NCBI GenBank assembly: GCA_009739215.1
Contig: VSJF01000003.1
Coordinates: forward strand, 2,046,001-2,110,000
Direction of reading: 5' to 3'
DNA from: Floccularia luteovirens
Lineage: Eukaryota > Basidiomycota > Agaricomycetes > Agaricales > Squamanitaceae
Length of the DNA: 64,000 nucleotides
Made by a program: the position numbers and the translations under genes. Below the pieces are notes generated by a model. The model was not told the origin of the DNA. It ran no database searches and was given only the letters and a program-made list of their open reading frames with translations. The stretch's first letter is position 1; every line of letters starts with the position of its first letter. Positions 7,548 to 19,987 of the stretch are shown here, in pieces.

Positions 7548-9660
7548 GTATGTCCTCATCCCTATTCTTTAACTGGTCGGGCTTAAGCACTCCTAGCGTG
7601 ATTCCGCTCTGTGGCCGCTTCCAGTCGTTTTCCTCCAGGTAAAGTTCAGCGCTATCTCCTGCCGAGAACTCCTCAAATTGTATCAGCAGGAAATTGCGAA
7701 GGGTAAATCAGAAACGGCTAATGACATTGTGATGTCCTATCAGTGTTACAACAAATGGCATAATTTTAGAACTGGAGTAGAGGAAAAAATTAGTTACGCG
7801 ATATCTTATGCAAAACACAGATAACGGTCACCTTTGCACGAGGGGGAAAGCTGTTTTCGATAAGTTGGCGGTGTATAGGCACGCATTTGGCGTTTGACAT
7901 GTGTGAACTAGGAATTTGCATGGAATCGAACAACTCGTCATTAACTACGCTAGGTGTGACAAGCTGGACCACCCGCGCCAACAAGCACGTTTAAGCCACT
8001 CTCGTAAACTGTATCGGGGAGCACCGAAGATACATCCCGAATGATGTTGAGGTGTCATTATTTGACAAATTCCAGTATTACAGATAGATCCGTGGCGAGG
8101 TCAAAAATTAATTACAAACCCCAGACATGCTGCACGTTAAATGAACTCTAGAGCTATTAACGGAGCAGATAATGAACACATACAAGTTAATCAGATATCG
8201 GCAATATCCCGCGTCGTGTGCTTGAAACTCCAGATGATACTATCTATGAAGTTGGGATGTTTGTTTTTCTATCAGGGCTCTCCGGTAATGAATATAAGAA
8301 TGGAGGGGAAACCTCACCTTGACAGCAGTGTATAATAATTACACGTAATATTCTGAAGAGTTGTTGAGGAGTCTTATGCAATGCTCCGGATAATCGGAAA
8401 GGTCTTCATTGATCATATCCAAAGCTGATTCGAATACATCACCCAGGATAGCAGGCACTTTCGACATTAAGGAGATCTATAATCCGGAACTTACCTGAGG
8501 TGTTATGAAGGCAATAGAGACGAACATACGCTTACACAGGTGATAAATGTAGCGGAAACATTTATCATTTCCACATCGCTGACCACAGGGGCATTTTGTT
8601 GATAGTTCGCTCAACATAACATTCAGCAATGGATGCAAGAAATTGGTTTTGGAATATTCCAGATCTCCTGCGCTTGACATAGATTTCTTCCATTTTGACA
8701 TCTCCTGTGTTTCACTAAAAAAGGCTACATAAATGTGTTATACTCACAAAGATAGCATTACTCGCCTTCGCAAACGATACTTTCTTTCATAGTACTACGG
8801 ATAATCTTGTGCAGAGCTAGTACAGTAGTTGTCGAATCTGTAGCACGTAATTGTTTCCTATAATCCTATTGACCTACATGCAAATACATTAATCTTCAAA
8901 GAATTTTAAGGGCTTTGGATATTTTCGGCACTTGACAGTACGTCTGCGCCCTGTGAGGATTGTGATGTGAGAGGGCCCCAATACAAGTAGGGACTTGCAA
9001 GATATCCTGGGCAGTAGCTATGTGCTTTGTTAGGAGTTCTGTGAGGTTCGGAATAAGCCAGAAATCATATACTCTATTGAGTTGTTAACGTTGAGTCTAT
9101 CCATTTCAAAATTGAAAACTTTCTGAAAAGGGTATTTTAAAACACACCTACTGTGGTGATTGCAAGTTGTTAGCCAACTGTAATGACGTGGAATAGACGC
9201 AAAATCTTACCCCATAAATGGTTCATGTTCGTTTGGCTGCTGCGTGATAAAACTCTAGTGACATTTCTTGGGTATTTGATAATAGTATCGCATGCCATGT
9301 CCCGAACACCTAAATCAAACTAAACGTTACCAGTGTACAGAAGGTCAGATGCAACAAACGCTTCGTTCTTGTTCTCCTCGCGTTCTGACCATACCAACTC
9401 TTTGATGACACGGGACCAAAAGCCGTTTATCACATACAGTTTTAGGTTGGTTGTTTTAAGCTATTTACTCTGAGCAATTGCATTATTTTATTTCACGAAT
9501 TCTGCAACACTCGTTCTCTACAATGAATAACTTGTGTGTGGATAAGCAAAGAGCATCGAAATAGAGAATTTAAGAGAATAACTTACTTCCTCAGGTATGA
9601 CCACCTGTTCAAAGACAACGGGACAAACTTTTAACGACATAGATCCTTTCTCAAGCAGAG
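7548..9660 (-). pseudogene. Decayed exportin-1 (Crm1/Xpo1) copy
   Basis: Remnant of a third exportin-1 gene, in the same orientation as the two complete copies upstream of it. Recognisable pieces, in exportin order from 9650 down: VVIPEEV; VIKELVWSEREENKNEAFVA (complete copies: [20 protein letters not shown]); VRDMACDTIIK; GADVLSSAENI; AGDLEYSKTNFLHPLLNVML; ALDMINEDLSDYPEH; LARVVQLVTPSVVNDELFDS; FEEFSAGDSAELYLEEN; and LKPDQLKNRDEDIQR, where the normal stop after DEDI is lost. Between these the frames are broken by stops and indels, and the N-terminal third is absent. The 5' truncation falls a few hundred bases from a retrotransposon gag remnant. Too damaged to encode a working karyopherin. 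Confidence 0.85.
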
Positions 9661-10128: not shown

Positions 10129-10760
10129 CTAATCTAAGATGGTGAAGTGCTTAGTATAAAGAGTAGGCATGGTACGTCGTAGAATTTTCATTCTCTGAAT
10201 CCTACTATCGGCACGGATTGCAGCATCCTTGTAGTCTTGATAAGTATAAGGGACGACTAGCATCTCATAGGTCATGTGAATGATTTCGTTGTTGAGTGCA
10301 TCGTCGAGTAGGGAGACAAGATAACTGACATGGTTTTGCAGTGGCAGATAGCCAGCATCTGCGGCATAGGATTCAAACTTCACGAAGAAGTTGGTGACCG
10401 TTTCTTCCCCTTGTTTCAGGGCATTCATTTCTCTAGTTGCATTCTGCTCCTTGAATGGGTCTCCAAATGCTTTTTCAAGCTCTGTCCAAAGTTGGGGAAA
10501 TGTTCCCCAATCCGGGTTTTCAACTTCTAATTTTGATCATATAAAGTTATCACACCATAGGGCGGGTATGTCGTATCGTAGCAGGTATGACAAAACAAAT
10601 AGTATCTTTGTTTTATCATCGGGGAAATCTTCGCTATTACCAATTATAAATAATTGGCATTGTCTCTTGAACTGGTCAAGGTTTTTACCATCAAATGGAG
10701 GAGGAGTGCACTCGGAGGATTGGGTAGAGCTTGAAGTAGAGGGTATTGTGTGCCAGTTTG
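10129..10760 (-). mobile_element. LTR-retrotransposon gag remnant
   Basis: Minus-strand reading gives a retrotransposon gag (capsid-like) domain: PPPFDGKNLDQFKRQCQLFI, then FPDDKTKILFVLSYL, WGTFPQLWTELEKAFGDPF and GEETVTNFFVKFESYAADAG. PFDG..F..F with DDKTKI and W...F...FGDP is the pattern of Ty3/gypsy-type gag proteins in basidiomycetes. There is an in-frame TGA at 10537-10539. No zinc knuckle, protease, reverse transcriptase or integrase follows, and I see no terminal repeats, so only a fragment remains. It sits inside the exportin array, next to the truncated end of the decayed copy. Confidence 0.75.
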
Positions 10761-11222: not shown

Positions 11223-14200
11223 TCATATGTCCTCATCCTTATCCTCCATCTGGTCAGGTTTGAGCATTCCGGGAATGCGCATGGCAAGTTCTCGTTCTGC
11301 GTCTGCTTTATTCTTGATTTCTAATTCTTTTTCCTCCAGATAAAGTTCAGTGTTATCTCCAGCAGAAAACTCCTTAAGTTGAATAAGGAAGTCGCGCAAT
11401 GCAAGTCTGAAACCATTGGGATCATTGTGGTTCATCCTTATTGCTTCAACAAAGGCTTGTATTTGGGAGCTAGGGTAAGAAAAAGAGTTAATTATGCGAT
11501 ATCATATAGCAAATGCGCGAAACAATAATCACTTTTGAACATGGGGGAAAGCTGTCTTTAGCAGTTTGGCAGTGAATTCGTGTACGAACATGGCATTCGA
11601 TATATTAGGATTGGGGACCTGGGCTGGATCGAACAACCGGGCACTGATTATATTAAGTTCGACGAGCTGACATAGCCGCGCCAACAACACGCCTTGCATT
11701 TTGAAACCACTTTTGTGATCAGCATCTGTAAGCACGAAAAATACATCTTGAATGATGCTCAAATAGTACTGCTGGAAAAACGCGTCTGTCACGGCTGGAT
11801 CCGCAGCAGCTGCAAAATTGTTTACGACCTCCAGGCATACTACGCATCAAGTGAGCTATATATTATAATAGAAGCAAGTCGCGAGTACATACAACTCAAA
11901 CCGATATCGGCAATGTCACGCATTGTGTGCTTTATAGCCCAGATGATACTATCCATGAATAACTTGAATTGAGGAGGTGGTATCCCTAACAAGGCTATGT
12001 ATTGATTGCTATTAGAACGGATATATTTATTGTGACAGAGAGCTCACCGGGGAAACAATGCATGTTGATGGCACGTAATAGTCTGAAGAATCCAAGCCGA
12101 TGCTCCGGAAATTCGGAAAAGTCTTGATTTATCATATTTAAGGTTGGTTCGAATATGGCATTTAAGATAGCAGGCACTTGAGGTGTAAGTAAACTCTATT
12201 CCAAGGTTAGTAAATCCATGGAGAGAATAAGGAAGTACATACGCCTAGACTGGTGATAAACGTAGCAGAAATATTTAGCACCTCTGCATCCCTTGCTGCA
12301 GGGACGTTTTGTTGATAGTCCCCAAGGACGGCATCCAACAATGGAGGCATGAAGTTGGTATTAACAGAATCCAGGTCTTCAGCGTGTTGGATGTAGGTTT
12401 CCATCAGTTTTAATATCTCCTTTTTCACTGTTCGCAGTTGTTTTATCTTGGATGTCTTCGTTGCAATTTCACCTAACGAAAAAAGCTAAATCTCATTTAT
12501 ATTGTACCCAACACGTTATAACTCACCCTCCCTAGCAACAGTTTCGCTGATAATACCGCTGACAGCCTTGTAGAGACCCAGCATGTCAAGAAATATTCGC
12601 CCAATTTGAGGAAGGTAGAAGCTTCCTATGGAAGTACAGGCGGACACGTTGGTCTTTAACACGTTTGCAAGGATTTTGATATTGTCAGCACTTGACAATA
12701 CATCCATGCTTTGTGCAGCTTGTGACATGAGGGAATCCCACTAACATGAGTGAGCATAGAGGGGCATCAAAGGGAACAGGTGTCATACGTACAGCATTGT
12801 TAGGAAGTTCCATGAGTTTTGAGATTAGCTTTTCCTGCTGAGGCTTATTTGGCTGAGCGGAAATCATATAACCAACCGCTTCGTAGAAGGTGTGGACCTA
12901 TATATTTCATTAGCTGCAAAGAATGCTGCAAAGGAGTGTGGAATGGACCTGTTGTGGTGATAGGTCAACGGTAATCCTATGTAGTAGACGCAAAATCTCG
13001 TCCACAAATGGTTCATGTTCGTTAGACTGTTGCATGACAAAATGCCGACGACATCTTTGTGCTATTTTGATAAAAGTATCACATGCCATGTCCTGTACAC
13101 CTGAGCTTTGAGTTAGAAATTTAACCTTGGAATGGAATAAAATAAAGTATACCTTCATGAGTCTCATGCATAAACTCGAACAACTTGTTGACTACGGTCT
13201 TCAAGAATTTCCAGTGCGCTTTGAGGAAACGAGGATATTGGCCAACAATGTACATAATATCAGATGCAATCACTGCTTTGTTATCCTTCCCGCGTTTGAC
13301 TTCGACCAGCCCAAGGAGTTCTTTGATAACAGTGACCAAAAATCTTTTCTCTGTTTCTTCATCTGCATAGTCGATTCGTTGTCAAAACACGTTCATGGAA
13401 CATAAAAATCAAATTTCGCTTACTCATTGCACCAGATATCGAACCAATAGCCCAGCACAATGTATTCAAGTTGTTCCATGACCATTCAGAACCATCTACT
13501 TGCTTTGATAATTTCTCTGTCAGGATTGCCTCGGTATCCACTACATCAAGATGAGTGAGGTAAACGAGTAACTCTCGCATTGACTTGTATAACACGATTG
13601 TATCGCTCTCCTTCATGAATTCTCGTACAATTTCCCCTTCATCATTCTCCACAATCAAAACCTGCACACAATGTAAGCAAAGAATGCACAGAATATGCGG
13701 AGAAATACTGACTTCTTCAGGTTTGACCATTCGCTCAACGACAACGAGGCGCAGATTCGATAACACATCACTGTAGATATTTTTTCTCAAGTTCATTCCA
13801 TTCAGAAGATTTTGAGCACCACTATTGCCCCCCAAGCTCAGCCCCATGATCATTCCGGATTCTCCACTAGCTGTGCTTTGCACCTCTCCATATAGTTCGG
13901 CCACGAGTTTCAACCAATACTCCAAGCAAATTTTGAAGATTTCTCGTTCTTCTACTTGGGATACTTTGACCATGTACAGATGGGCATTGAGGAGTAAGTC
14001 ATGGTGTTCTTCTGTTTCCAGAGTGCGTAGGTGATTAGATAGGAAGTTGACAAGAAACAGTGAGAGATTGAGGATAAGTTCTTGTCCAGAATCGCTTGTA
14101 TTCTTATAAGCTTGGGCGATATCTGTACTGGGGGGAATCATCTTGTTGATTGAAGTCATAACCATGATGAATAGGGTAACGAATTTGGGATCGTATTCAG

Positions 14201-15346
14201 GTCCAACACTGAGCCCAGAAACCTCTGCAAGGCATTGTATAGTGATATTTCGAAACTGCGGTGCTTCCAGGAACTATAGTAGAGATAGTGTGTTATTATT
14301 AGAGGAGAAACGGGCTATACAATATAGGACTCACGCGTGTCAAAAGAAGATCTATGATATTAGTTTCGAAAATATAACCAAGAGGAATCCAGTTCAAGAA
14401 ACGGAGCAATGTTTCCATGGTTGCTTTGATAAGCGAAGCCTTCTGAGCCTCCGCAAGAACTTCGTAGCACAGCTTGAATATTTCAGAAAACTCGCCACAC
14501 ATCTGGTTCTTAAGGTCCTTGATTCTCGTTTGCGTCATTTGTTCCGCGGAGTAGTCGAAGATCTCTTCTGAAAGTAGTTTCAAAATAACCATATTGTTCT
14601 CGCATATTGATAGATTGTCTTTCGAGGCTTCCACTAGTTCTGTTATGAAAGTAGGCCAATTATGAGGCCATTCTTGTTTCAAGATCTAAATAATAAACGT
14701 CACACAAGCAGCTCTGTAAACACATGTCTCACGTACTTGAACAAGGGCAAGATTCAGTTTGTTAAGATAGGCCCTTTCTTGCCGTATCGCGACCTCATCA
14801 GAAGAAATCTTAATGTTCAGCGTGACAATGAAATTTCGAATGCCTTCCAACATGTTTCAGTAATAAATGAATTTGAATTATTAATGGACGTGCCTTGGCG
14901 CTGACCCTCAGGTAACGTCTTCCATCGCGTCAAAATGAGCTTTTCGAGGATTTGCAAACCGATATACTGATGAAAGCACCCACGTCAAGGTCGTATCAAA
15001 GACACTGAACGCGAAAATACCTTTGTTTGCGGGAACGTCGATTTTTCAAGGATATCAGGAACTCTCATCCATGAATCCGGATGTTCTTGAAATTGAGTGA
15101 GGACTTGCTGAGCCATATTTTGCTGCGAGGCGAAAGGGGTAGACACGACATATTATTGGTTAATTCGAGTTGTGCAAAAAGGGAGAACGAATATAATGTC
15201 TAACCTCAGAACCACCACCAGTATAGAACGCCATCACCACCTTATCCATGAGATCAACATCAAACTCTTTCGAAACATCGAGGAGACCCTTTTCAATATT
15301 TTTGAGAGAATTAAATCAAAGAGGAATAGAAATCGCTGACCTCCAT
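11223..15346 (-). CDS. Exportin-1 paralog (Crm1/Xpo1) with Val at the leptomycin site
   Basis: Karyopherin that carries leucine-rich-NES cargo out of the nucleus with Ran-GTP. The start at 15344-15346 gives ME, an intron, then [20 protein letters not shown] and FYTGGGSE. The full family order follows: [171 protein letters not shown] and the acidic end [12 protein letters not shown]. All introns join in frame, and their positions match the neighbouring copy. At the leptomycin-reactive position this copy reads [13 protein letters not shown] (Val codon 13304-13306). One intron uses a GC donor (14892-14893). Roughly 80% identical by eye to the 15865-19987 copy where compared. Confidence 0.93.
14840..14893 (-). 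other. GC-AG intron in the exportin paralog
   Basis: The exon ending GQRQ is followed by GCACGT rather than GTACGT (donor GC at 14892-14893), and the acceptor ends TTGGAAG. Joining gives [13 protein letters not shown] in frame. The equivalent intron in the 15865-19987 copy starts GTGAGT. A T-to-C change at donor position 2 is the simplest explanation. Confidence 0.7.
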
Positions 15347-15864
15347 TTCCTTAGACGCGAGGATTATGCGTAGGCTTTAGGAGTATGTAGAGGTTTGTAG
15401 CGATTGGACTGAACGACGCGTTTTACAAGGCAAGAACACAGTGATTGTTAGATGAAAAGTACCTGCCAACGATGAAAACTCAGTCGTTCGTTTGATGGCC
15501 ACAAACAGTCACAGGAAACAGCAGTTGTTATCATGAATCCAACAGTTTATCCCATTGTAGGTTAACAATGTACGCTAACTGTCAGCTTACATGACCCAAC
15601 AATTCTAAATTTGGCTGGCTGTTTTAGCGAACAACACCCAACTCGATTTAAAAAATTTTTCTCTTATTCTCCAAAACTTTGCGTTGGTAAGTACGTAAGG
15701 TTACAAGGTTCAGACGGACATGCGTTGCGTAATTTAGCTACAATGTTTCTTGGGGATAGTGATAGTAGTACATAAATTTATCAAGAAGCGAGCTTGGAAG
15801 ATGCGGTGCTAGACAAAAAGCTTGACAGCAGTCGAAATCAGTGTGTGAGTGGTTGTAGTATACA
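15347..15864. other. Spacer between the two complete exportin genes
   Basis: About 0.5 kb that must hold the promoter of the 11223-15346 gene and the 3' UTR of the 15865-19987 gene. No other gene seen and no clear regulatory motif. Confidence 0.4.
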
Positions 15865-18800
15865 TCATATATCTTCATCCTTGTCCTCTATCTGGTCGGG
15901 TTTGAGCATTCCAGGAATCCGCATAGCCTGTTGACGCTCTGCCTCTGCCTTGCGTTGTGACTCCAGCTCTCTTTCTTCTCGGAACAGCTCTGTGTTATCA
16001 CCGGCGGAGAACTCTTTCAACTGGATCAGGAAATCTCGCAACGCTAATTTAAATCGGTTGATATCATTGTGGCTCTCGCTTAGTGCAACGACAAATGTCT
16101 GAATTTGCCCTCTGTTCCACTTCGTGAGGATTCTTATACATAGAAAAAGATAACAACGCGACTCACGGTTGTACATGAGGGAATGCATTCTTCAACAGAT
16201 TGGCGGTATACTCTCGCAAGAAAACTGAGTTGGTGACATTCGGTTCGGTGATCTGAGAGGGGTCATATATCGGTGATTGGATTACATTCAATTCGACTAG
16301 CTGGAACATCCTCGACAAGAGTAAGCTTTGAAGCTTGAAGCCACTCTTATGATCCGCATCGGTGAGAACGAAGAATATGTCTTGCACAATACTCAAGAAG
16401 TATTGTTGGAAGAAGGCATTTGTTACTGCGGGATCAGCAGCACCCGCAAAGTTGTTGACAACTTCTAGACACACTGTAAACCAAATGTCAAACCAAGCTG
16501 ATATTTTAAAAACGACATCCGGCTTACAATTCAAACCAGTGTCGGCTATATCACGCATAGTATGTTTGATGGCCCAGATAATGCTGTCCATAAATAGCTT
16601 GAATTGGTTCGGTGGTATACTCAGCAATGCTAGAGATTTGAAAGTCAGTAAAGATATAAGAGACATGTAAAATATATTACCAGGGAAGCAATTCAGGTTT
16701 ATGGCACGCAAGAGTTTGAAGAACCCAACACGATGTTCTGGGTACTCTGCAAAGTCTTGATTTATCATATTCAAAGTTGGTTCGAAAACGGCATCCAGAA
16801 TGGGAGGGACTTGAGGAGTTATGATGCTCTACAATGATAAAAATTATTTCAAAAATATCCCAAAACCAATGGGAAGGAATAAGTATTACACTTAACCTAG
16901 TGATGATTGCCGCCATTACATTCAATACCTCAGCGTCTCTCGACGCTGGCACGTTGCGACTATAATCACCAAGAATGGCATCTAGCAAAGGTGGCATGAA
17001 GTTGTTGTTCACAGCTTCGAGATCTTCTGCCTTCCTGACATATGTTTCCATGAACTTTAAAATTTCCTTTTTCACTGTCCGGAGTTGTCGAACTTTGGGC
17101 GTCTTCGTAGCGATCAATCCTATATATAAGAGGATTTTGAGTATCACCAAAAATAACGTGCCTATAATGGCATACCTTCTTTGGCGATAGTCTCGCTGAT
17201 GATCCCACTAACAGCCTTGTACAACCCTAGCATATCCAAAAAAATGCGCCCTATTTGAGGAAGATAGAAGCTCCCTATTGAGTTGCATGCAGAAACATTC
17301 GTCTTCAGAACATTTGACAGAATTTTAATATTGTCTGTGCTGGATAAAACGTCCATGTTCTGGGCAGCTTGTGACATAAGGGAGTCCCACTGCATATTTG
17401 AAATGGTTTAATAAGCTGGACACTTTGAACCGGTAACAATACGTACAGCACTATTTGGCAGTTCCATAAGTTTAGTAATGAGTTTCTCTTGTTGTAGTTT
17501 ATTAGGTTGCGCGGATATCATATAGCCAATCGCTTCGTAGAATGTATGAACCTGAATGAATATCAAAAACAGTCCTCAGAAAAGTCAATATTTAGTATAC
17601 CTGTTGAGGTGCAAGATCCACTGTTATCCTGTGGAGAGAACGTAGAATTTCGTCTACGAAAGGTTCTTGTTCACCCGACTGTTGCATAACGAAGTGCCGG
17701 CGGCATTTTTGGGCAATCTTGATAAATGTATCACAGGCCATATCTTGAACACCTACAAGCGTAATTTATTAATGATATCATTCGTGCTGTTATCCCAAAT
17801 TTTGACACCGACCTTCATGAGTTTCATGCATGAATTCAAAAAGTTTGTTGACTACAGTTTTCAAGAACTTCCAATGTGCCTTGAGGAACCGTGGATACTG
17901 CCCAACGATGTACATGATATCAGATGCCACGACTGCTTTGTTATCTTTCCCTCGTTTGATTTCGCACAATCCCAAAAGATCTTTGATAACTGTCACCAAA
18001 AATCGTTTCTCTGTCTCTTCGTCTGTTCGCCAATAATTTTAGTGTTACCGGTACAGGTCCTTCAATCGAAAAGGCGCTTACTCATTGCACCCGAGATTGA
18101 ACCTATTGCCCAACACAATGTATTCAGGTTGTTCCACGACCATTCCGAGCCATCTACTTGCTTTGCGAGTTTCTCTGTTAGTATGGTCTCCGTATCTGCA
18201 ACGTCGAGATGTGTGAGGTAAACAAGGAGTTCGCGCATTGACTTGTAAAGGACGATAGTGTCGCTTTCTTTCATAAATTCGCGGACAATTTCTCCTTCAT
18301 CATTCTCCACAATCAAAACCTGGTGCAAAACTTTAAAACAATAAACTTTAATTGTAATCATTGACGCACCTCCTCAGGTTTAACCATTCGTTCGATAACG
18401 ACCAGTCGTAGGTTCGATAGGACGTCGCTATATATGTTCTTCCGTAATGACATTCCATTTAACATGTTTTGCGCTCCTGGACCACCTCCAAGGCTCAATC
18501 CCATCAACAATCCTGACTCTCCTATTGGCAAATTTTGTATTTCTTCATAGAGTTCAGCTACCAGTTTGAGCCAATATTCCAGACAGATTTTGAAAATTTC
18601 CCGTTCATCGACTTGAGATATCTTAACCATATACAAATGTGCGTTGAGAAGGACGTCGCGATTTTGGTCTGTCTCCACTGCGCGCAGATGGCTTGATAAA
18701 AAGTTGGCGAGGAAGAGAGCGAGGTTGAGAACAAGTTCTTGCCCTGCATCACCTGCATTCGCGTATGCTTGGGCTATGTTGGTACTTGGTGGGATCATAC

Positions 18801-19987
18801 GATTGACCGAAGTCATAACCATGGCGAACACAATGACGAATTTGGGGTCGTATTCGGGTCCCACATTGAGCGCAGCAATTTCTGCAAGACATTTTAGAGT
18901 GACATTGCGAAATTCCGGAACTTCCAAGAACTACCAGACGACTTGAGTAAATATTGTAACAGAAAACTAATATCACTTACACGATTCAACAGAAGGTCGA
19001 TTACAGTTGTCTCAAATATGTAGCCTAAGGGTATCCAGTTCAAGAAGCGGAGGAGGGTTTCTAGTGTCGCTTTGATAAGGGATGACTTCTGAGCTTCTTC
19101 TAGAACTTCCGAACAAAGTTTAAATATTTCAGAAAACTCTCCGCACATTTGATTCTTGAGATTTTTTATTTTAGTTTGAGTCATTTGTTCTGCGGAGAAA
19201 TCAAAGATTTCCTCTGAGAGGAGTTTAAGGATGACCATGTTGTTTTCGCATAGCGAGAGATTGGTTTTTGACGATTCCACGAGTTCCGTTATGAATGTAG
19301 GCCAGTTATGTGGCCATTCCTGCTTCAAAATCTGATGCGAAGATCAACGACTAATATTCATTGGCGCTGGAATTGTTGTTACCTGTACTAACGCAAGGTT
19401 TAATTTGTTTATGTATGTCTTCTCTTTCCGGAGGGTGACCTCATCTGACGCAACTTTGACAGTCACTCCAACAATAAAGTTTCTGATTCCTGTATGATTG
19501 GGGTCATACTTGTCCCACCGACAGTTTACAAATTACAAATGACTCACCTTGCCGCTGGCTGTCTGGCAACGTCTTCCACCGCGTTAATATCAGTTTTTCT
19601 AGTATTTGGAGGCCTATATACTATAGATTAGGAGTAATATATCTAAATAATGTGTAAATTGGATATCGCGATCATATACGAACTTTTGACTGTGGGAACG
19701 ACGACCGCTCAAGGATATCAGGAACCCTAGTCCAAGAATCTGGATGGTCTTGGAACTGTGTGAGAATCTGTTGTGCCATTTGTTGCTAAGATTCAATCCA
19801 TTAGCCCTGTCATCTTTGCAACAAAGTGATTCTGGGATGATGGATACCTCAGCACCTCCCCCTGTGTAAAAGGTAATAACGACCTTATCCAGGAGAACTA
19901 TGTCGAAATCGCGCGAAAAGTCGAGCAGACCCTGTTGAAGCGATGAGATAATATCACGGGATAAGATGAACGCGAACCGACCTCCAT
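15865..19987 (-). CDS. CRM1: Exportin-1 (Crm1/Xpo1), conventional copy with reactive Cys
   Basis: Nuclear export receptor for NES proteins. The start at 19985-19987 gives ME, an intron, then [20 protein letters not shown] and FYTGGGAE; the next exon begins [12 protein letters not shown]. All conserved blocks are present: [171 protein letters not shown] and the tail [12 protein letters not shown] with stop at 15865-15867. The region equivalent to human Cys528 reads [13 protein letters not shown] (Cys codon 17964-17966), so this copy should be leptomycin-B sensitive. Every intron examined has GT/AG borders and joins in frame. Probably the housekeeping copy. Its upstream neighbour is a divergent oxidoreductase gene. 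Confidence 0.95.

What the first reader, a model, noticed from the sequence alone, without database searches (positions are those of the whole stretch)
11223..19987. Tandem exportin-1 pair with Cys in one copy and Val in the other at the leptomycin-reactive site
Seen: at the conserved LLGL-x-E position the 15865-19987 gene reads [13 protein letters not shown] (Cys codon 17964-17966) and the 11223-15346 gene reads [13 protein letters not shown] (Val codon 13304-13306). Known: leptomycin B alkylates this Cys (human Crm1 Cys528), and S. cerevisiae Crm1, with Thr there, is naturally insensitive. Inference: the fungus carries a sensitive and an insensitive exportin side by side. The second copy may protect against leptomycin-like polyketides from soil Streptomyces, or may have a specialised cargo set. 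The frames of both are intact, so both are likely expressed.
Basis: partly seen in the sequence, partly recalled or inferred. Interest (0 to 1): 0.88.

Follow-up and report, generated by a model that had tools for sequence, protein, structure and literature searches.

The report
Mushroom's spare, possibly leptomycin-proof exportin
A mushroom genome carries two neighbouring genes for the main nuclear-export receptor, an ordinary one with the cysteine that leptomycin-type drugs attack and a faster-evolving but intact one with valine there; some other mushrooms show the same swap in a second copy, which hints at a drug-proof backup that has yet to be tested.

Summary
Two complete exportin-1 (CRM1) genes lie head to tail on the minus strand: B (19987-15865, Cys527) and A (15346-11223, Val527). 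Each has 17 exons, 1078 codons, identical intron positions and the six exportin-1 Pfam domains. B is the ordinary agaric orthologue, 92-93% identical to Laccaria and Crucibulum. A is a fast-evolving duplicate (82% to B), yet its NES cleft differs from B at 4 of 68 residues and its acidic loop at none. A third, decayed copy lies downstream.

New here: Val recurs. Phellopilus and a Mycena each have a Cys and a Val copy; Desarmillaria has a divergent Val copy. Of 786 columns at least as conserved as this site, only this one is altered in all four divergent Val copies, always to Val; but these were picked as Val carriers, and two may share an origin.

A's insensitivity to Cys-reactive inhibitors is likely from chemistry, untested. 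A drug-proof backup is my best single explanation (0.45), closely rivalled by an incidental swap (0.38). Expression and exposure are unknown. New variant of a known kind.

The parts
15865..19987 (-). Gene B: ordinary exportin-1 (CRM1), Cys at residue 527, 17 exons, 1078 aa
   Evidence: spliced model; six Pfam domains; 92-93% to Laccaria and Crucibulum
17964..17966 (-). Cys527 codon (TGC) of B, the leptomycin-reactive position
17813..18022 (-). Exon 9 of B, holding nearly all of the NES cleft
   Evidence: intron coordinates; cleft limits from PMC7938638
11223..15346 (-). Gene A: duplicate exportin-1, Val at residue 527, 17 exons, 1078 aa
   Evidence: spliced model; six Pfam domains; longer branch
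13304..13306 (-). Val527 codon (GTC) of A
13153..13362 (-). Exon 9 of A, holding nearly all of the NES cleft; over the cleft A and B differ by D522E, C527V, I529V, V539I
14844..14893 (-). Intron 4 of A with GC-AG ends
7549..9620 (-). Third exportin-1 copy, degraded, closer to A than to B

Best explanation
Shown from sequence: exportin-1 was duplicated head to tail in an agaric fungus. One copy (B) stayed the ordinary Cys-bearing exportin. The other (A) has an end branch three to four times longer, has Val instead of the inhibitor-reactive Cys (at least two base changes from a Cys codon), and kept its NES cleft and acidic loop almost unaltered under purifying selection. A further copy, closer to A, decayed. 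Inferred: A exports NES cargo with RanGTP much as B does and cannot be alkylated at this position by leptomycin or similar compounds, because Val has no thiol. Inferred, less certain: since a Cys-less copy can keep export going when the Cys copy is blocked, A was kept at least partly as an inhibitor-proof backup (target-duplication resistance). The same Cys-to-Val change in second copies of other mushrooms points the same way.
For: Intact A with six exportin-1 domains. Constraint: dN 0.110 with saturated dS; A departs at 24 of 559 near-invariant columns, 15 of the 24 being V/I/L/M or K/R swaps, B at 4. Cleft least changed. A looks separate from the P0148/P0151 lineage: 4 and 1 shared derived states against 52 between those two. 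Of 786 columns at least as conserved as the site, only this one is changed in all four divergent Val copies, each time to Val; 0.026 columns expected if departures were independent. One Cys528-less allele gives dominant selinexor resistance in human cells (PMC5356594, passages). Leptomycin attaches to this Cys, and yeast CRM1 had to be given T539C for inhibitor crystals (PMC7938638, passages). Leptomycin B comes from soil Streptomyces and was found as an antifungal (PMC7902601, PMC4752587, passages).
Against: No expression, drug or exposure data. Val and Thr also occur in fungi for which I saw only that copy, so Cys is dispensable and its loss can be incidental. The four-copy test is not blind: all four were picked as Val carriers, A was given for its Val, and P0148 surfaced in a search aimed at this stretch. 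Without A, four columns are changed in the other three (0.39 expected), so this site is then not alone. P0155 shares 15 and 14 derived states with P0148 and P0151, more than the 8 with Serendipita P0150, so these may be one old lineage. A joint origin of A, P0155, P0148 and P0151 is not rejected (p-AU 0.231). The Val of P0099 is shared with Fomitiporia P0104 and P0109 and may not belong to the Phellopilus duplication. P0148 has no known Cys partner. In Hymenopellis P0151 the site is missing from the predicted protein.
Confidence: 0.45

Rival explanations
1. Incidental replacement: A was kept for dosage, regulation or partly changed partners, and Val is simply one of the residues this site tolerates. 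Insensitivity would be a side effect, not the reason for keeping the copy.
For: Only Cys, Val and Thr were seen at the site, and Val or Thr also occur in sequences with no known Cys partner, for example Serendipita, Fomitiporia and Tremellales-type yeasts (order name recalled). A departs from consensus at 168 of 1078 residues against 88 for B, so some change is expected anywhere. No exposure data.
Against: The cleft is otherwise almost frozen (4/68), and the same residue is changed to Val in other divergent copies (with its sampling caveats).
Confidence: 0.38
2. A is silent or on its way to decay, like the third copy.
For: Longer branch than B; one GC-AG intron; a sister copy already decayed; expression unknown.
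Against: Frame intact over 1078 codons with 16 usable introns; dN 0.110 with saturated dS; 535 of 559 near-invariant columns kept.
Confidence: 0.08
3. A is a self-resistance gene against an export inhibitor that the fungus itself makes.
For: Duplicated, drug-proof targets are a known device of fungal producers (recalled).
Against: No ketosynthase or terpene synthase match lies in the window. No P450 match lies there among 100 listed, though only 92 of 236 first-look candidates were scored. Nine of 20 scanned neighbouring frames hit Pfam: housekeeping-type families plus one retrotransposon gag. NRPS genes were not searched, and a distant cluster is not excluded.
Confidence: 0.03
4. On origin, and not exclusive of the others: the divergent Val copies of Agaricales descend from one old duplication lost in most species, so Val arose there once or twice and not by repeated convergence.
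For: Joint clade of A, P0155, P0148 and P0151 not rejected (p-AU 0.231); P0155 shares 15 and 14 derived states with P0148 and P0151; V539I is shared by A, P0155 and P0148.
Against: Holding A and B together raised the likelihood of the 46-row quick tree by 9.3; A shares 4 and 1 derived states with P0148 and P0151, and its 7 with P0155 do not exceed its 8 with Serendipita P0150; A falls in a starred group with Laccaria and Crucibulum. Hymenochaetales Val copies lie elsewhere in the tree.
Confidence: 0.2

Closest known systems
Exportin-1 (CRM1/XPO1) of agaric fungi such as Laccaria bicolor and Crucibulum laeve
   Same: Length, domain set and cleft; B is 92-93% identical and has the Cys
   Different: A is 85% identical and has Val at the Cys, plus D522E, I529V and V539I in the cleft
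Naturally Cys-less CRM1: S. cerevisiae Thr539, and the solved CRM1 4fgv with Thr (species Chaetomium recalled)
   Same: No thiol at the leptomycin position in an exportin; yeast was engineered to T539C for inhibitor structures (PMC7938638)
   Different: There the Cys-less protein is the exportin of the species; here a Cys copy and a Cys-less copy stand side by side
Engineered heterozygous XPO1 C528S human cell lines (PMC5356594)
   Same: A sensitive and an insensitive exportin in one cell; selinexor resistance is dominant
   Different: Laboratory-made Ser allele and a synthetic inhibitor; here a natural Val paralogue in tandem
Two-copy species Phellopilus nigrolimitatus and Mycena sp. CBHHK59/15
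   Same: One Cys copy and one Val copy
   Different: Mycena copies are listed with different contig lengths; adjacency in Phellopilus could not be checked; whether the duplications are independent of this one is likely but not proven

Membership tests
Exportin-1 (CRM1/XPO1) | Domain set IBN_N, Xpo1, CRM1 repeats and CRM1_C in order | tested here: met
   Six families over cut-off in both A and B
Exportin-1 (CRM1/XPO1) | Conserved NES-binding cleft (human 509-576) | tested here: met
   A and B differ at 4 of 68 residues; B equals the consensus at all 68
Exportin-1 (CRM1/XPO1) | Acidic loop that clamps Ran | tested here: met
   0 of 23 residues differ among A, B and consensus, taking residues 425-447 as the loop (delimitation recalled)
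Exportin-1 (CRM1/XPO1) | Exports NES cargo with RanGTP | not testable with these tools
   needs binding or complementation assays
Leptomycin-sensitive CRM1 (gene B) | Cys at the human 528 position | tested here: met
   Cys527, TGC
Leptomycin-sensitive CRM1 (gene A) | Cys at the human 528 position | tested here: not met
   Val527, GTC
Target-duplication resistance gene (gene A) | Intact second copy of a drug target lacking the drug-reactive residue, beside a sensitive copy | tested here: met
Target-duplication resistance gene (gene A) | Second copy is expressed and gives measurable resistance | not testable with these tools
   no transcript or drug data
Self-resistance gene of a biosynthetic cluster (gene A) | Lies beside core biosynthetic genes | tested here: not met
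   No ketosynthase or terpene synthase match in the window and no P450 among those scored (92 of 236 candidates); NRPS not searched
Pseudogene (gene A) | Broken frame or lost constraint | tested here: not met
   Frame intact and constrained; the copy at 9620-7549 does meet it

The most novel reading that the evidence does not exclude
Mushroom-forming fungi have more than once evolved a second exportin-1 in which the single inhibitor-reactive cysteine is replaced by valine while the cargo cleft stays otherwise nearly frozen: a convergent, standing backup against natural Cys-reactive export inhibitors such as leptomycins, implying that such compounds are a recurring selective force on these fungi.
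Probability: 0.35. Interest if true: 0.8.

Novelty: new variant of a known kind. Interest (0 to 1): 0.6.

Why it matters
Exportin-1 is essential and is a drug target in people. A natural pair of predicted sensitive and insensitive copies side by side would give a clean test of whether Cys-reactive inhibitors shape fungal genomes, and of what Val at this site costs cargo export. If the recurrence holds under blind sampling it would point to defence by target duplication in mushrooms, which I did not find in the listings of my ten open-library searches. It also marks Val as a residue that nature tolerates at the leptomycin and selinexor site.

Tried and rejected
Plus-strand translation gave stops throughout and the first genome query failed for that reason; the genes are spliced and on the minus strand. 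Haplotype artefact: rejected on fourfold sites and introns. Gene conversion around the cleft: not supported; fourfold identity in segment 491-588 is 16/33 against 92/297 in the other ten segments, a little higher, but dS there is still about 2.1. Biosynthetic-cluster context: no support, with the P450 search incomplete. Link between Glu522 and loss of Cys: Glu is in 6 of 9 Val, 2 of 8 Thr and 2 of 123 Cys sequences, but there are only 5-6 independent pairs and the sign test is not significant. A Cys partner in Desarmillaria: none among the 120 listed, which proves little because the listing ended near the score expected for one. Structure prediction: not run, because the spliced proteins do not read letter for letter from the window and the fold is hardly in doubt.

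Sampling and dropped rows. The three protein searches listed 120 of 3470, 120 of 1178 and 120 of 3744 hits, 155 different proteins in all. By a fixed pattern 132 read Cys, 9 Val, 9 Thr and 5 did not match; of those 5, three eukprot sequences (algal, name recalled) read Cys by eye, and P0118 and P0151 could not be read. The alignment kept 142 of 157 sequences (the 155 plus A and B): those of 1030-1110 aa without the three algal ones, so Val-bearing P0142 was dropped. Trees used hand-picked subsets of 63, 46, 23 and 65 rows. Pfam was run on 20 of the 54 stop-to-stop frames of 130 aa or more; 9 of the 20 had a match. The species was not identified.

Literature. None of the ten search listings of an open-licence library showed a paper on paired Cys/Val exportins or on duplicated exportin-1 in mushrooms; several listings were cut at 5-12 papers, and subscription papers are mostly not held. 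Papers of which I saw passages: PMC4752587, PMC7902601, PMC7938638, PMC5356594, PMC3083441, PMC5612171. PMC3083441 reports species-specific karyopherin duplications, with fifteen XPO1 members in T. vaginalis as the extreme.
Full report
What is there. The two coordinate ranges hold two complete exportin-1 (CRM1) genes, both on the minus strand, head to tail, with 518 bp between them. I call the Cys gene B (19987 to 15865) and the Val gene A (15346 to 11223). Plus-strand translation is full of stops. Spliced models on the minus strand give 1078 residues each, with 16 introns at the same CDS positions. All introns are GT-AG except A intron 4 (14893-14844), which is GC-AG. I chose the junctions by hand from frames, splice signals and homology. 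Residue 527 is Cys in B (TGC, 17966-17964) and Val in A (GTC, 13306-13304). It aligns with human Cys528 (human numbering in PMC7938638, passages). Both proteins carry IBN_N, Xpo1, three CRM1 repeat families and CRM1_C over cut-off.

Not allelic. A and B are identical at 882/1078 residues. Only 108 of 330 fourfold-degenerate sites agree, dN is 0.110, dS is undefined by NG86 because it is saturated, and the introns are unalike. The window lies on contig C16 of a 27.0-Mb, 22-contig genome. Searches of that genome with residues 1-428 and 429-1078 of B gave 9 and 20 matches, all at this locus; the tool scores only the best candidates.

Which copy is ordinary. B is 92.4% identical to Laccaria bicolor and 92.7% to Crucibulum laeve exportin-1; A is 84.6% to both. 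End branches are 0.24 for A and 0.08 for B in a 63-row tree, 0.23 and 0.055 in a 46-row tree, 0.30 and 0.07 in a careful 23-row tree. So the Cys copy is the conserved orthologue and the Val copy the derived, faster one. Both fall in a starred group with Laccaria, Crucibulum and Cyathus in the first two trees. A and B being sisters is not rejected (p-AU 0.628, where holding them together raised the likelihood by 9.3; p-AU 0.403), but branching inside the group is weakly supported. The species was not identified.

A third copy. Pieces of another exportin-1 gene lie at about 9620-7549 on the same strand, with stops, shifts of frame and lost segments. The best piece scores 198 bits to gene A; the best to gene B scores 55. 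Around the site it has a Glu codon, as A has, where B has Asp, and a TGGTC string like A's, but the alignment there is ambiguous. A retrotransposon gag fragment (Pfam Retrotrans_gag) lies between A and this copy.

Is A a working exportin? In an alignment of 142 sequences, 559 columns are at least 98% conserved among 122 Cys orthologues. A departs at 24 of them, 15 being V/I/L/M or K/R swaps, and B at 4. The Cys column is conserved by construction in this set. In the NES cleft (human 509-576 in PMC7938638) A and B differ at 4 of 68 residues: D522E, C527V, I529V, V539I. Elsewhere they differ at 192 of 1010 (Fisher p 0.005). The acidic loop, as I delimit it (residues 425-447), does not differ; the last 49 residues differ at 10. 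This is the pattern of a constrained gene. It speaks against a wholesale change of cargo recognition, though changes elsewhere (168 departures from consensus in A, 88 in B) could alter partners or regulation.

How common is Val? Three searches listed 155 different proteins (120 listed of 3470, 1178 and 3744). By a fixed pattern 132 read Cys, 9 Val, 9 Thr and 5 did not match; three of the five read Cys by eye. One search was aimed at this stretch, so these are not population figures. The fewest changes among Cys, Val and Thr are 10 on the 63-row tree and 9 on a 65-row tree, with 5 between Cys and Val when Thr rows are set aside.

Other species with two exportins. Mycena sp. CBHHK59/15 has a Cys copy (P0106) and a Val copy (P0155), 77% identical and listed with different contig lengths. 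Hymenopellis radicata has a Cys copy (P0117) and a divergent copy (P0151) whose predicted protein lacks the site, so its residue is unknown. Desarmillaria ectypa has a long-branch Val protein (P0148) with no partner seen. Two Mycena citricolor entries (P0116, P0140, 93%) both read Cys, as do two Psilocybe cubensis entries (P0014, P0063, 99%); these may be one gene annotated twice.

One origin or several? P0148 and P0151 share 52 derived states at well-conserved columns. A shares 4 with P0148, 1 with P0151 and 7 with P0155, the last no more than the 8 it shares with Serendipita P0150; so A looks separate. P0155 shares 15 with P0148 and 14 with P0151, so those three may descend from one older duplication. 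A joint origin of A, P0155, P0148 and P0151 is not rejected (p-AU 0.231), nor of A with P0155 (p-AU 0.098). The Val of P0099 is shared with Fomitiporia P0104 and with P0109 and may not be tied to the Phellopilus duplication. I count two to four origins of divergent Val copies, not a firm number.

Is the repeated Val more than chance? Of 786 columns at least as conserved as this site in 136 reference sequences, one is altered in all four divergent Val copies (A, P0155, P0148, P0099): this site, Val each time. About 0.026 such columns are expected if departures were independent. Leaving out A, four columns are altered in the other three (0.39 expected), this site among them. The test is suggestive, not clean: all four were picked as Val carriers, P0148 surfaced in a search aimed at this stretch, P0155 and P0148 may share an origin, and the site is replaceable elsewhere in fungi.

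Mechanism. Leptomycin B attaches covalently to this Cys, and S. cerevisiae CRM1 was given T539C for inhibitor structures (PMC7938638, passages); the solved CRM1 4fgv has Thr there. Val has no thiol, so A should not be alkylated; this is chemistry, not a test. One Cys-less allele beside a sensitive one gives dominant resistance to selinexor in human cells, with slightly slower growth in most mutant lines (PMC5356594, passages). Whether the same holds for leptomycin in this fungus is inference. Leptomycin B comes from soil Streptomyces and was found as an antifungal (PMC7902601, PMC4752587, passages; an actinomycete screen also recovered it, PMC5612171). Best single reading: A is a functional exportin with an inhibitor-proof cleft, kept at least partly as a backup (0.45). 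The closest rival is an incidental, tolerated replacement in a copy kept for other reasons (0.38).

Self-resistance is not supported. No ketosynthase or terpene synthase match falls in the window, and no P450 match among the 100 listed, though only 92 of 236 first-look candidates were scored. Of 20 neighbouring frames scanned, 9 matched Pfam: TPR, helicase, aminotransferase V, HSP90, HYPK UBA, ALG3, dynamin, SRR1 and the retrotransposon gag. NRPS genes were not searched.

Novelty. Cys-less CRM1 as such is known (yeast Thr539). A tandem Cys/Val pair and its recurrence in other mushrooms did not appear in the listings of ten searches of an open-licence library. I rate it a new variant of a known kind, interest 0.6.

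Noticed in passing
window 7549-9620 (-): Third exportin-1 copy, degraded, closer to the Val gene than to the Cys gene.
   Followed up: partly
window 10129-10536 (-): Retrotransposon gag fragment (Pfam Retrotrans_gag) between the Val gene and the degraded copy; it may mark the rearrangement that built the array.
   Followed up: no
window 14844-14893 (-): GC-AG intron 4 in the Val gene where the Cys gene has GT-AG; a possible point of weak or regulated splicing.
   Followed up: no
residues 522 and 539 of A and relatives: Asp-to-Glu five residues before the site is in 6 of 9 Val but 2 of 123 Cys sequences, too few independent pairs to test. V539I is shared by A, P0155 and P0148.
   Followed up: partly
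P0148 (Desarmillaria ectypa) and P0151 (Hymenopellis radicata): A very divergent exportin-1 lineage, 71% identical to each other with 52 shared derived states; Mycena P0155 may belong near it.
   Followed up: partly
P0075, P0102, P0137, P0141, P0143, P0146, P0147, P0149, P0152: Nine sequences, basidiomycete or unnamed, with Thr at the leptomycin site as in yeast.
   Followed up: no
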